From NCBI RefSeq assembly GCF_009811755.1, contig NZ_BLIV01000002.1, positions 489,001 to 553,000 of the forward strand: a DNA stretch of 64,000 nt, given 5' to 3'. Source of the DNA: Roseobacter cerasinus. GTDB lineage: Bacteria; Pseudomonadota; Alphaproteobacteria; Rhodobacterales; Rhodobacteraceae. Below, piece by piece: positions 26,240 through 40,538 of the stretch. The notes beneath the pieces are model-generated. The model had not been told where the DNA came from, made no database searches, and was given only the letters and a program-made list of their open reading frames with translations. The stretch's first letter is position 1. Each line of letters begins with the position of its first letter. The position numbers and the translations under genes are program-made.

Positions 26240-27289
26240 ATGACCCCATTCGCCATTGCCGGCGTGCAGATGTATGTGAACGCGTTGCATTCCAACGTGG
26301 AAGGGATGATCCACCGGTTGGACGTGCTGATGGCGCGCTTTCCCTGGACGCAGATGGTGCTGTTTTCGGAGCTGGCGCCCTACGGTCCCTTGGACAAGTT
26401 CGCGCAGCCGCCGCAAAACGACGCGCTGGAGACCTTTTGCGAGGCCGCGCGCAAGCATCGCATCTGGCTTATTCCGGGGTCGATGTTCCTGCGTGATCCG
26501 GAGACGGGGCTGGTGTTCAACACCGCTGTTGTGATCAATCCAGAGGGCGAGGTCATCAAACGCTATGCCAAGATGTTTCCGTTCCGGCCTTATGAAACGG
26601 GCATTGCGGCAGGCACCGAGTTCTGCGTGTTCGATGTGCCGGAGGTGGGGCGCTTTGGCCTGTCCATCTGCTATGACATCTGGTTCCCCGAAACCACGCG
26701 ACAGCTGACCGCGCAGGGCGTCGAAGTGCTGTTGCACCCGGTCCTGACGGGCACCACCGACCGCGATGCGGAGCTTGCAATTGCCCGCTCCACGGCGGCG
26801 CAGTTCCAGTGTTATGTCTTCGATGTGAATGGCCTGGGCGCGGGCGGTGTTGGGCGCAGCCTTGTGGTGGACCCCTCGGCGCATGTGCTGCACCAATCCG
26901 CCGGGCAGGAAGACATGTTCCCCATCGAGATCGACCTCAACATGGTCCGCCGCCAGCGCGAGACCGGTATGAAGGGTCTGGGTCAGGTGCTCAAGAGCTT
27001 CCGCGACCGCTCCGTCGATTTCTCCGTCTATGACCGCGACAGCGGAACCGATGCCTACCTCAAGACGTTAGGCCCTCTGGAGATCCCCCAACAGGGGACG
27101 CGTGCGGGCCTCCATGTGGATGTGCCAGCCGACAGGGTGCCAGAGACGCCGGCCTTCAAGGGGCTGGCGATCGACAGTGTCGCGGGCAAAGTGACCGCAC
27201 CCCAAATCACGCAAGCGGCCCAAACAGAGGCTGTAAATCAACCCTCGGACCACCCGGTTCCGGGGGACAAGAGACAATCCAGCGGGTAG
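26240..27289 (+). CDS. Carbon-nitrogen hydrolase (nitrilase superfamily)
   Basis: 349 residues. The catalytic triad is visible: Glu44 (FSELAPYGP), Lys111 (YAKMFPFRPYE) and Cys144 (SICYDIWFPE). The family cleaves or forms C-N bonds: N-carbamoylputrescine amidase, aliphatic amidase and others. Next to a basic-amino-acid decarboxylase, an agmatine- or carbamoylputrescine-type substrate is plausible but not proven. The last 80 residues are a polar extension. ATG at 26240 with GGAG nine bases upstream. First gene of the four-gene run ending at 32581. Confidence 0.9.
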   Translation: MTPFAIAGVQMYVNALHSNVEGMIHRLDVLMARFPWTQMVLFSELAPYGPLDKFAQPPQNDALETFCEAARKHRIWLIPGSMFLRDPETGLVFNTAVVINPEGEVIKRYAKMFPFRPYETGIAAGTEFCVFDVPEVGRFGLSICYDIWFPETTRQLTAQGVEVLLHPVLTGTTDRDAELAIARSTAAQFQCYVFDVNGLGAGGVGRSLVVDPSAHVLHQSAGQEDMFPIEIDLNMVRRQRETGMKGLGQVLKSFRDRSVDFSVYDRDSGTDAYLKTLGPLEIPQQGTRAGLHVDVPADRVPETPAFKGLAIDSVAGKVTAPQITQAAQTEAVNQPSDHPVPGDKRQSSG

Positions 27290-27357
27290 ATCGCCGCATC
27301 ATATCGGGCTTCGGCCCTTGCATGATTGGTGGTGTCCCGGACAGCGGAGGACAACTG

Positions 27358-38604: not shown

Positions 38605-39576
38605 ATGACAGGCGCCATCCTCTCCATCCGCAACCTCACAGTCGAAATCCCAACGCGATACGGCATTCTGCGGCCTGTGAACGGAGTTTCCTACGATATC
38701 GCCGCCGGGGAAATCCTCGGTGTCGTGGGCGAGTCCGGGGCGGGCAAGTCGATGGCGGGCAATGCGGTCATCGGGCTGTTGACCCCGCCAGCGCATATCG
38801 CCTCGGGCGAGATCCACGTGGGTGGCACGCGGGTGGATCAACTCAAGGGCGACGCCATGCGGCGGCTGCGCGGCAAGGAGATCGGTATGGTCTTTCAGGA
38901 CCCGCTGACCTCGCTCAACCCTCTGCTCAGAATCGGGGATCAGCTGACCGAAACGATGCTCGCGCATCTCGATATCAGCCGAGCAGAAGCGGACCGTCGC
39001 GCGGTGGCCGCTCTCGAAGAGGTCGGCATTCCGGGAGCCGCCGAGCGTGTGGGCAGCTACCCACATGAATTTTCCGGCGGCATGCGTCAGCGGGTGGTGA
39101 TTGCGCTCGCGCTCTGTGCGGAACCAAGCCTTGTCATCGCCGATGAACCAACGACCGCGCTGGATGTCTCGGTGCAGGCGCAGATCATTGCACTTTTGAA
39201 ACGGCTGTGTCGCGAGCGGGGTACGGCGGTGATGCTGATCACCCACGACATGGGCGTGATCGCGGAGGCGGCAGACCGCGTGGCGGTGATGTATGCGGGC
39301 AAACTGGCGGAACTTGGCCCCGTGCGTGACGTGATCACGCAGCCGCGCCACCCCTACACATACGGCTTGATGGGATCGACGCCCTTGGCGTCGCGTGGCA
39401 AGGACCGGCTGCATCAGATTCCGGGCGCCATGCCGCGTCTTGATGCGCTGCCCGAGGGCTGTGCGTTTCACCCCCGTTGTCCCAAGGCGCAGGATGCGTG
39501 TCGCAGAACGCCGGAGCCGAAGATGGATGGGCGCGCGGCCTGTTTCTTTCCGATGGTTGGGGAGGCCGTGGCCTGA
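38605..39576 (+). CDS. Peptide ABC transporter ATPase, DppD type
   Basis: 323 residues: Walker A GESGAGKS, Q-loop MVFQDPLTSLNPL, signature FSGGMRQR, Walker B LVIADEPTTALD, and the C-terminal oligopeptide motif CAFHPRCPKAQDAC (Cys residues, possible Fe-S). Works with the DppF-type protein. 145 bases separate it from the permeases. Stop overlaps the next ATG by one base. Confidence 0.94.
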   Translation: MTGAILSIRNLTVEIPTRYGILRPVNGVSYDIAAGEILGVVGESGAGKSMAGNAVIGLLTPPAHIASGEIHVGGTRVDQLKGDAMRRLRGKEIGMVFQDPLTSLNPLLRIGDQLTETMLAHLDISRAEADRRAVAALEEVGIPGAAERVGSYPHEFSGGMRQRVVIALALCAEPSLVIADEPTTALDVSVQAQIIALLKRLCRERGTAVMLITHDMGVIAEAADRVAVMYAGKLAELGPVRDVITQPRHPYTYGLMGSTPLASRGKDRLHQIPGAMPRLDALPEGCAFHPRCPKAQDACRRTPEPKMDGRAACFFPMVGEAVA

Positions 39577-40538
39577 TGGCGCTGGTGGATGTGCGCAACC
39601 TGACACGTATTTTTGACGTGTCGAAGCCCTGGCTGAACCGTGTGGTGGAGCGGCGCGGGAAGTCCTATCTGACCGCTGTGTCCGACGTGAGCTTCGAGAT
39701 TGCGGAGCGTTCTGTTTATGCGCTGGTGGGCGAGAGCGGGTCGGGCAAATCGACCATCGGCAAGATGCTGGTGGGGCTGCTTGGCCCCTCTGAGGGCGCG
39801 GTGGAGATCCGCGGCACCGATCTTGCGCGTGAGACGGATGCCGCCAAGGTCGATGCGGTGCGGCGCGATATCCAGATGATCTTTCAGGACCCCTTTGCCT
39901 CGCTCAACCCGCGCTGGCGGGTCCGTGATATCATCGTGGAGCCAGTGGCTGCGCGCGGTGGCGACACGACCGGCATGGCCGAGCGCCTGCTGGAGCAGGT
40001 GGGGCTGTCGGCCAAGGATGCTGGCAAGTTCCCGCATGAATTTTCCGGCGGCCAGCGGCAGCGTATCTGCATTGCCCGCGCGCTGGCCTCCGAGCCCAAG
40101 CTGATTGTCTGTGACGAGCCGACAAGCGCCCTCGATGTCTCGGTGCAGGCGCAGGTTCTGAACCTGATGAGCGACCTGAAGGATGAGTTCGGGCTGACCT
40201 ATCTCTTCATCAGCCACGATCTCACGGTTGTGCAGCATATGGCCGACCGGATTGGCGTGCTCTACCTCGGGCGGCTGGTGGAGGAGGCGGCGCCGGACGC
40301 GCTCTTTGACGATCCCAAGCATCCCTATAGCCAGATGTTGCTCGCTGCCGCGCCGCAGCTCGACAATTTCGGGCGCGAGGTGCCGCCGCCCACGGGTGAG
40401 ATCCCCGATCCGATCAACCCGCCCAAGGGCTGCGCGTTTCACCCGCGCTGTCCTTTGGCGGAAGATGTCTGCAGCCAGACCCGCCCGGAGATGCGCGAGA
40501 TCCGGGGCGCGCGCGTGGCCTGCCATATGGCGGAGTAA
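39576..40538 (+). CDS. Peptide ABC transporter ATPase, DppF type
   Basis: 320 residues: Walker A GESGSGKST, MIFQDPFASLNPR, FSGGQRQR, LIVCDEPTSALD, and CAFHPRCPLAEDVC at the C-terminus. The start at 39576 is the TGATG overlap with the DppD-type gene; the frame upstream is just shadow reading. Completes a two-receptor, two-permease, two-ATPase peptide importer. Confidence 0.94.
   Translation: MALVDVRNLTRIFDVSKPWLNRVVERRGKSYLTAVSDVSFEIAERSVYALVGESGSGKSTIGKMLVGLLGPSEGAVEIRGTDLARETDAAKVDAVRRDIQMIFQDPFASLNPRWRVRDIIVEPVAARGGDTTGMAERLLEQVGLSAKDAGKFPHEFSGGQRQRICIARALASEPKLIVCDEPTSALDVSVQAQVLNLMSDLKDEFGLTYLFISHDLTVVQHMADRIGVLYLGRLVEEAAPDALFDDPKHPYSQMLLAAAPQLDNFGREVPPPTGEIPDPINPPKGCAFHPRCPLAEDVCSQTRPEMREIRGARVACHMAE

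What the first reader, a model, noticed from the sequence alone, without database searches (positions are those of the whole stretch)
26240..40538. Nitrilase-decarboxylase-ATP-grasp-C45 gene run feeding into a two-receptor peptide importer
Seen: four closely spaced same-strand genes (gaps of 68, 24 and 22 bases) encode a CN hydrolase with intact Glu-Lys-Cys triad, a 917-aa PLP decarboxylase, an ATP-grasp ligase and an Ntn C45 acyltransferase/hydrolase. They are followed after 128 bases by a peptide ABC importer with two paralogous receptors. Known: these families respectively cleave amides, make polyamines, join acids to amines, and exchange or remove acyl groups. Inference: together they could make, remodel or break down an amide-linked polyamine or amino-acid conjugate, with the transporter taking up the compound or its precursor. 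I know no described pathway with this exact set.
Basis: partly seen in the sequence, partly recalled or inferred. Interest (0 to 1): 0.75.

Follow-up and report, generated by a model that had tools for sequence, protein, structure and literature searches.

The report
Conserved glutamate-to-GABA amide gene cassette
Four neighbouring genes in a Roseobacter-like bacterium form an undescribed metabolic unit, shared with some root-nodule and other bacteria, that probably makes and breaks an amide of the small molecule GABA; its exact substrate is still unknown.

Summary
In detail: nitrilase, PLP decarboxylase, ATP-grasp ligase and C45 genes lie where stated. They are a real unit: all four occur in 65 of 65 close relatives with at least 19 kb of sequence. 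In 248 Rhodobacteraceae genomes the ligase occurs in 39, C45 in 41 including all 39, the decarboxylase in 35, 34 with the ligase.

The peptide importer is not part of the unit: it accompanies 7 of 80 loci, a TAXI-TRAP importer 45.

The polyamine idea is weakened: six of eight ligase-free decarboxylase relatives examined sit beside aspartate:alanine-type antiporters, and the Glu of arginine and lysine decarboxylases aligns to Asn728. gabT recurs beside the cassette (29 of 80) and shares an upstream box with it in some loci.

Best reading: a glutamate/GABA-centred pathway; the decarboxylase makes GABA, ligase plus C45 (often nitrilase) make and cleave an amide whose other half is unknown. The decarboxylase family includes M. 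tuberculosis Rv2531c, of undetermined activity. Ten literature searches found no description.

The parts
21874..22503 (-). PuuR-like XRE-cupin regulator
   Evidence: NF007408 PuuR 140.4 bits, below cut-off 211; HTH_3 + Cupin_2; puuR-type neighbour (>=40% identical) in 21 of 80 loci
22629..24035 (+). gabT, 4-aminobutyrate transaminase
   Evidence: TIGR00700 553.2 bits, cut-off 506.65; gabT >=50% identical in 29 of 80 loci
22566..22593 (+). two boxes [AT]TTAAAC[AG] between puuR and gabT (starts 22566 and 22586; another at 22475)
24085..25707 (-). FMN-binding glutamate synthase-like protein
   Evidence: NF008730 129.3 bits, far below cut-off 1047; >=50% identical neighbour in 32 of 80 loci
25769..25776 (+). 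same box (ATTAAACA) in the intergenic region before the cassette; it is about 470 bases before nit and about 60 bases before the divergent glutamate synthase-like gene, so it may serve the latter
   Evidence: no exact box within 300 bases of nit in the window
26240..27289 (+). CN hydrolase (nitrilase superfamily amidase)
   Evidence: PF00795 99.2 bits; Glu44, Lys111, Cys144
27358..30111 (+). 917-aa PLP decarboxylase of the Rv2531c type, proposed acidic amino acid (glutamate) decarboxylase
   Evidence: PF01276 254.6 bits; PDB 9n0o/9n0n E 1e-247; Asn728 and Arg732
30136..31587 (+). ATP-grasp amide ligase, family PRK06524 (named biotin carboxylase by that model)
   Evidence: NF005096 758.1 bits, cut-off 684; conserved GDSGHTTFF, FELDFLID, LGELNPRITG
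31610..32581 (+). C45 self-processing Ntn amidohydrolase/acyltransferase
   Evidence: NF040521 185.7 bits; Gly87-Cys88; AF2 model pLDDT 83, best PDB match isopenicillin N acyltransferase 2x1c
32710..34290 (+). peptide-type ABC receptor 1 (SBP_bac_5); accessory
   Evidence: attached in 7 of 80 loci
34384..35949 (+). peptide-type ABC receptor 2 (SBP_bac_5); accessory
35966..36454 (+). small lipoprotein-like ORF, not seen in relatives
   Evidence: no family at E 0.001; no match in 111 loci
36532..37512 (+). ABC permease B; accessory
37512..38459 (+). ABC permease C; accessory
38605..39576 (+). ABC ATPase D; accessory
39570..40538 (+). ABC ATPase F; accessory

Best explanation
The four genes are one metabolic cassette centred on glutamate and GABA. 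Step 1 (inferred): the 917-aa PLP decarboxylase removes CO2 from an acidic amino acid, most likely glutamate, giving GABA; aspartate to beta-alanine is second choice. Step 2 (reaction type from family, partners inferred): the ATP-grasp enzyme uses ATP to join GABA, or the glutamate precursor, to a second small molecule by an amide bond. Step 3 (inferred): the C45 enzyme cuts itself to expose Cys88 and then cleaves or transfers that amide, and the nitrilase hydrolyses a further, probably primary, amide. Step 4 (inferred): GABA enters the GABA shunt through the neighbouring gabT. Conservation, co-occurrence and enzyme families are shown. The substrate and the net direction (breakdown of an imported amide, or making and recycling one) are not shown; I lean to breakdown because uptake systems and gabT recur beside it. 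Importers are exchangeable add-ons.
For: Unit: all four genes in 65 of 65 loci with >=19 kb, same order in 67 of 67 fully called loci, median gaps 60, 15.5 and 9 bases with mechanically called starts. Ligase genomes all have C45, 39 of 39; 34 of 35 decarboxylase genomes have the ligase. Acidic substrate: of 8 ligase-free decarboxylase loci that I fetched, 6 (47-50% identical) lie beside aspartate-alanine antiporters; at 3 of the 6 (L193, L195, L196) no aspartate 4-decarboxylase was found in the stretch. The Glu of VVEK[TS]G in an arginine and a lysine decarboxylase aligns to Asn728, which is Asn in 165 of 165 loci; Arg732 in 161 of 165 (some loci are the same genome twice). GABA side: gabT in 29 of 80 close loci and 7 of 30 others, 1 of 16 plasmid loci, 0 of 19 control loci; gabT with succinate-semialdehyde dehydrogenase at L188. 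Glutamate side: Glu-type dehydrogenase at 6 of 16 plasmid loci, PutA at L172, 5-oxoprolinase-like genes at L155 (by sight). In Shinella-type plasmid loci without the decarboxylase, ligase and C45 sit inside an arginine-to-guanidinobutyrate-to-GABA gene set. Shared box: within 450 bases upstream of the cassette operon in 25 of 72 loci against 9 of 547 other ORFs. No PF00282 decarboxylase in the genome.
Against: No substrate was measured. AspD is present at 3 of the 6 antiporter loci (L181, L192, L194), so AspT could serve it. The other two ligase-free loci fit basic or diamino acids better: L190 lies near LysE/ArgO, ArgP, an amine-type ABC importer and arginase, L191 near ectB. PMC12910592 calls Rv2531c distantly similar to arginine decarboxylases, and Arg732 is Ile there. 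That the AdiA/LdcI Glu holds the distal amino group is recalled; the passages I read did not state it. Succinate-semialdehyde dehydrogenase is rare beside the cassette: 2 of 80 and 5 of 30, with 1 of 19 controls. PF00282 decarboxylases are as common in carriers (31 of 42) as in others (26 of 41, five of these also carriers). In L142 and L143 the cassette sits in an ectoine-degradation gene set, and at L146 beside a urea transporter gene, which glutamate alone does not explain. The box pattern was widened after seeing an alignment of 12 loci; without these 12 it is 17 of 60 (my recount). It was missing in 5 of 12 loci with a puuR neighbour and no TAXI genes, and in the window it is nearer the divergent gene than nit. 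Loci are related, so counts are not independent events.
Confidence: 0.38

Rival explanations
1. One reading: a basic amino acid decarboxylase makes agmatine, putrescine or cadaverine, the ligase conjugates it (as gamma-glutamylation does in the Puu pathway), an aminotransferase oxidises the free end, and C45/nitrilase release GABA or 5-aminovalerate for gabT.
For: OKR fold; PuuR-like regulator and gabT nearby; class III aminotransferase near C45 in 27 of 80 loci; arginine pathway genes around ligase and C45 in Shinella; a ligase-free relative near arginine-related genes (L190).
Against: Asn728 replaces the Glu of the aligned basic decarboxylases; Asp:Ala-type antiporters beside 6 of 8 ligase-free relatives; SpeA and arginase-family genes elsewhere in the genome; no agmatinase or deiminase family among the window proteins scanned.
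Confidence: 0.22
2. Uptake and breakdown of an osmolyte-like or peptide-like amide (for example a diaminobutyrate- or GABA-containing solute) where the ligase only recycles or protects an intermediate.
For: TRAP importer and universal stress protein genes upstream, a layout that I recall for ectoine importers; ectoine operon insertion.
Against: Nif-adjacent rhizobial and Shinella contexts do not suggest one osmolyte; a ligase is not needed for simple breakdown.
Confidence: 0.2
3. Biosynthesis of a secreted or stored small amide (signal, siderophore-like or symbiosis compound), later re-imported by the ABC or TRAP system.
For: ATP-grasp plus decarboxylase plus acyltransferase-fold enzyme resembles natural-product logic; location beside nif genes on rhizobial plasmids.
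Against: I recognised no exporter or carrier protein among the 30 most frequent neighbour groups (by sight); importers and gabT recur instead.
Confidence: 0.15

Closest known systems
M. tuberculosis Rv2531c (PDB 9n0n, 9n0o)
   Same: Near whole-length homologue of the decarboxylase, 826 bits over residues 14-908; Asn at the 728 position
   Different: Arg732 is Ile there; its activity is undetermined (PMC12910592, passages read)
AdiA/CadA/SpeC group OKR decarboxylases
   Same: Same fold family and PLP lysine motif STHK
   Different: Scores far below every equivalog or subfamily cut-off listed; VVEK[TS]G Glu aligned to Asn
AspT-AspD proton-motive aspartate:alanine cycle
   Same: Decarboxylase relatives lie beside AspT-type antiporters
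   Different: The window cassette has no antiporter; AspD is another enzyme. Cycle taken from passages of PMC9508256
Puu gamma-glutamylputrescine pathway with GABA shunt (recalled)
   Same: Logic of ligase, amidase, gabT and a PuuR-like regulator
   Different: The ligase is ATP-grasp, not glutamine synthetase-like; the amidases are C45/nitrilase; the regulator is below the PuuR cut-off
Isopenicillin N acyltransferase (C45)
   Same: Fold (Foldseek probability 1.00, TMq 0.62-0.68 for 2x1c) and Gly-Cys processing site
   Different: 11-14% identity; substrate unknown
Butirosin Btr and citrylornithine decarboxylation schemes
   Same: Decarboxylation of a conjugated amino acid unit; BtrK and N-citrylornithine decarboxylase are named in PMC8503589 (passage); the ATP-dependent conjugation steps are recalled
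   Different: Those decarboxylases are alanine-racemase fold; no carrier protein seen here

Membership tests
Nitrilase (CN hydrolase) superfamily | Glu-Lys-Cys triad and Pfam cut-off | tested here: met
   99.2 bits against 23.2; Glu44, Lys111, Cys144
N-carbamoylputrescine amidase AguB | Score above TIGR03381 cut-off | tested here: not met
   56.9 against 410.25
OKR (AAT-fold) decarboxylases | PF01276 and PLP lysine | tested here: met
   254.6 against 27 bits; STHK lysine 568
Arginine/lysine/ornithine decarboxylases proper | Glu at the aligned VVEK[TS]G place; family cut-offs | tested here: not met
   Asn728; best 219 bits against 968. Activity itself not tested
Glutamate or aspartate alpha-decarboxylase activity | Releases CO2 from Glu or Asp | not testable with these tools
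   Only context and residues argue for it
ATP-grasp family PRK06524 | NF005096 cut-off | tested here: met
   758.1 against 684
Biotin carboxylase proper | Biotin carboxylase model cut-offs | tested here: not met
   NF006367 23.4 against 597, NF009471 32.9 against 686
C45 autoproteolytic acyltransferase/hydrolase | NF040521 cut-off, Gly-Cys site, Ntn fold | tested here: met
   self-cleavage itself not tested
Puu pathway | PuuR above cut-off; PuuA-type ligase | tested here: not met
   PuuR model 140.4 against 211; ligase is ATP-grasp
Dpp/Opp peptide ABC importer | SBP_bac_5, two permeases, two oligo_HPY ATPases | tested here: met
   ligand not tested

The most novel reading that the evidence does not exclude
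The cassette is a new GABA-centred amide cycle, and the Rv2531c-type decarboxylases are a new family of glutamate (or aspartate) decarboxylases built on the fold known for arginine, lysine and ornithine, used with AspT-type antiporters in some bacteria and with the ligase/C45 pair in others, including nif-linked rhizobial plasmids.
Probability: 0.28. Interest if true: 0.78.

Novelty: new variant of a known kind. Interest (0 to 1): 0.6.

Why it matters
If right, it gives a function to a conserved cassette whose ligase is filed as a biotin carboxylase, makes the unknown Rv2531c-type enzymes testable through harmless relatives, and adds a glutamate/GABA route to Roseobacter-type bacteria and to rhizobia, where the genes can lie beside nitrogenase genes. 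It also shows one enzyme core fitted with different importers.

Tried and rejected
Structure of the ATP-grasp protein: AF2 on 53 sequences (window plus 52 of 80 loci) gave pLDDT 40.7, so no fold search was run on it. C45: 51 sequences (window plus 50 of the 62 usable loci listed) gave pLDDT 83.2.

Receptor ligands: the closest solved receptors are generic peptide-, opine-, heme- and glutathione-type binding proteins; no ligand can be inferred.

Replacement test: PF00282 decarboxylases are not rarer in carriers (31 of 42) than in others (26 of 41). The sets overlap (G004, G006, G010, G013 and G188 are in both), and I chose the 42 out of the carriers found.

Second C45 copies (42-48% identical) lie, by sight, beside an esterase gene and mostly a CopG-type regulator (annotated so in L197). 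I judged them a different subfamily and used nine such loci, L197, L198 and the eight ligase-free decarboxylase loci as the 19 controls; only 7 of the 19 reach 19 kb.

First shared-box pattern (TT[AT]AAAC[AG]) found the cassette upstream in 6 of 72 and was widened once.

Promoter and terminator scan: 0 promoter-like and 14 terminator-like sites against a mean of 11.5 in shuffles; uninformative.

Literature: ten searches, of which some aimed at gene combinations of the cassette, listed no paper that I recognised as describing it; I read passages of nine papers and no whole text. PMC8305402 (passages) mentions a nifA-responsive biotin carboxylase Bphy_7724 in P. phymatum; I could not show that it is a homologue. 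PMC10252897, PMC7866039, PMC6297170 and PMC12484125 (passages) gave nothing usable.

Changes made on checking: the best-reading confidence was lowered from 0.40 to 0.38, the polyamine rival raised from 0.20 to 0.22 and the novel case lowered from 0.30 to 0.28, because the arginine-side neighbourhood of L190 had been left out.
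Full report
What is there. The run is as described: nitrilase 26240-27289, decarboxylase 27358-30111, ATP-grasp 30136-31587, C45 31610-32581, then a complete peptide-type ABC importer to 40538. The nitrilase triad (Glu44, Lys111, Cys144), the decarboxylase PLP lysine (568) and the C45 Gly87-Cys88 site are in place. Upstream lie a PuuR-like regulator (below the PuuR cut-off), gabT (above the TIGR00700 cut-off) and an FMN glutamate-synthase-like gene.

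A real unit. A scan of genome contigs with the ligase kept the best 80 of 551 confirmed relatives, 88-98% identical; 79 titles name Rhodobacterales-type organisms and one (L037) only an alphaproteobacterium. Of these, 65 have at least 19 kb; all 65 carry all four genes. In 67 loci where all four were called as + strand ORFs the order is the same, with median gaps of 60, 15.5 and 9 bases, starts being called mechanically. In 248 Rhodobacteraceae genomes the ligase (E <= 1e-100) occurs in 39 by my count of the rows; C45 (E <= 1e-40) in 41, including all 39; the decarboxylase (E <= 1e-100) in 35, of which 34 have the ligase and the other, G212, is a 62% complete genome whose match starts at a contig end. 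Five ligase genomes lack the decarboxylase (G034, G038, G100, G180, G200). Outside the family it is rare: 8 of 289 genomes of the class and 11 of 398 of the phylum at E <= 1e-40, both including family members, and 8 of 274 of the class of G876, 5 over the family cut-off. It rings in 0 of 14 control genomes. On plasmids 32 of 72,556 records match at E <= 1e-40.

Core and options. Gene order changes: nit-ligase-C45-decarboxylase in L142 to L144, ligase-C45-nit without decarboxylase in L151 to L153.

The importer is an add-on. The ABC importer of the window is attached in 7 of 80 loci, a TAXI-TRAP permease in 45, both in one (L014), and neither in 20 of 65 full-length loci. Rhizobial plasmids carry another peptide-type ABC importer plus an amidase, Shinella an amino acid permease, and L151 to L153 a three-part TRAP-type importer judged by sight.

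The decarboxylase. Its closest solved relative is M. tuberculosis Rv2531c, whose activity is not known and which a review calls distantly similar to arginine decarboxylases (PMC12910592, passages). PMC8503589 (passages) says of the shorter ancestral-form AAT-fold homologues that many, actinobacterial ones included, are unlikely to be polyamine enzymes. Three observations point to an acidic substrate. First, of eight ligase-free relatives that I fetched, six lie beside AspT-type antiporters: Rhizobium T136, Ensifer (two loci), Rhodobacter CZR27, Phyllobacterium and the second copy in G101, all 47-50% identical. AspT couples aspartate uptake to decarboxylation in Tetragenococcus (PMC9508256, passages). 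AspD is near at three of the six. The other two speak differently: L190 lies near LysE/ArgO, ArgP and arginase genes, L191 near ectB. Second, the Glu of VVEK[TS]G in the aligned arginine and lysine decarboxylases meets Asn728, Asn in 165 of 165 loci, with Arg732 in 161 of 165. That this Glu holds the distal amino group is recalled. Third, the genome has an arginine decarboxylase SpeA (NF003763 687.7, cut-off 369; TIGR01273 619.9, just under its 624.1) about 2.5 kb from an arginase-family gene, so polyamine supply does not rest on this cassette.

GABA and glutamate neighbours. gabT at 50% identity or more lies in 29 of 80 close loci, 7 of 30 others, 1 of 16 plasmid loci and 0 of 19 control loci without the ligase; 12 of the 19 controls are shorter than 19 kb, which weakens the contrast. 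Succinate-semialdehyde dehydrogenase is much rarer: 2 of 80, 5 of 30, 1 of 19 controls. L188 has both gabT and that enzyme; L172 has gabT and PutA, which makes glutamate. Glutamate-type dehydrogenase genes lie at 6 of 16 plasmid loci. In Shinella-type plasmids the ligase and C45 stand in an apparent operon with genes that turn arginine into guanidinobutyrate and GABA (L136 by similarity). One reading joins these: GABA is the common node, made by the decarboxylase or by the arginine route.

Shared control. The box [AT]TTAAAC[AG] occurs five times in the 64-kb window, four of them between 22475 and 25776. In relatives it lies within 220 bases upstream of gabT in 16 of 18 loci (the pattern came from these) and within 450 bases upstream of the cassette operon in 25 of 72, against 9 of 547 other ORFs and 37 of 3880 random windows. 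The pattern was widened after looking at 12 loci; without these 12, 17 of 60 remain by my recount. In 5 of 12 loci with a puuR neighbour and no TAXI genes it was not found. In the window itself the box before the cassette (25769) is about 470 bases from nit and about 60 from the divergent glutamate-synthase-like gene, so it may serve that gene.

Awkward facts. In L142 (and by similarity L143) the cassette lies inside an ectoine gene set (DoeA 670.2 bits, cut-off 613; DoeB 491.4, cut-off 402.7; counts). At L146 it lies beside a urea transporter domain fused to an M23 peptidase domain (PF03253). These may mean that the other half of the amide is a different amino compound such as diaminobutyrate. 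PF00282 decarboxylases are not rarer in carriers.

Mechanism and verdict. Shown: the cassette, its conservation, the families, the exchangeable importers, the recurrent gabT. Inferred: glutamate as substrate, GABA as node, ligase and C45 acting on one amide. Unknown: the partner and the direction. It is a new variant of known enzyme chemistry; ten searches of a library that lacks most subscription journals listed no description that I recognised.

Noticed in passing
L192, L193, L194, L195, L196, L181: Rv2531c-type decarboxylase beside one or two AspT-type antiporters, in L192 also near HdeA/HdeB: looks like an acid-resistance or proton-motive module.
   Followed up: partly
L137 (Vavilovia symbiont), L199 and L127 (lentil symbiont): Decarboxylase-ligase-C45-importer cassette next to nifHDKEN (L137) and nifHD (L199), and a second decarboxylase-ligase copy near fixABCX-nifA (L127), on R. 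leguminosarum plasmids.
   Followed up: partly
L129, L132, L138: Nif11-like leader peptide or small hypothetical gene with radical SAM epimerase and C-methyltransferase genes close to the cassette in clover rhizobia.
   Followed up: no
window 35966-36454: Small lipoprotein-like ORF inside the importer run, without a family or a match in 111 loci.
   Followed up: partly
L146, 3482-5656: Urea transporter domain fused to an M23 peptidase domain, next to decarboxylase-ligase-C45.
   Followed up: partly
L175, L177, L178, L182, L197: Second C45 subfamily preceded by an esterase-like gene (annotated PHB depolymerase family in L197), mostly with a CopG-type regulator; by sight except L197.
   Followed up: no
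L012, L022 and others downstream of C45: Class III aminotransferase (PRK07483) in 27 of 80 loci, sometimes followed by a beta-keto acid cleavage enzyme (6 of 80), suggesting a beta-amino acid branch.
   Followed up: no
L190, 7968-10748: Ligase-free decarboxylase homologue on the same XES5 plasmid that carries the ligase-C45 arginine cluster, near LysE/ArgO, ArgP and arginase genes; counts against an acidic substrate for that copy.
   Followed up: no
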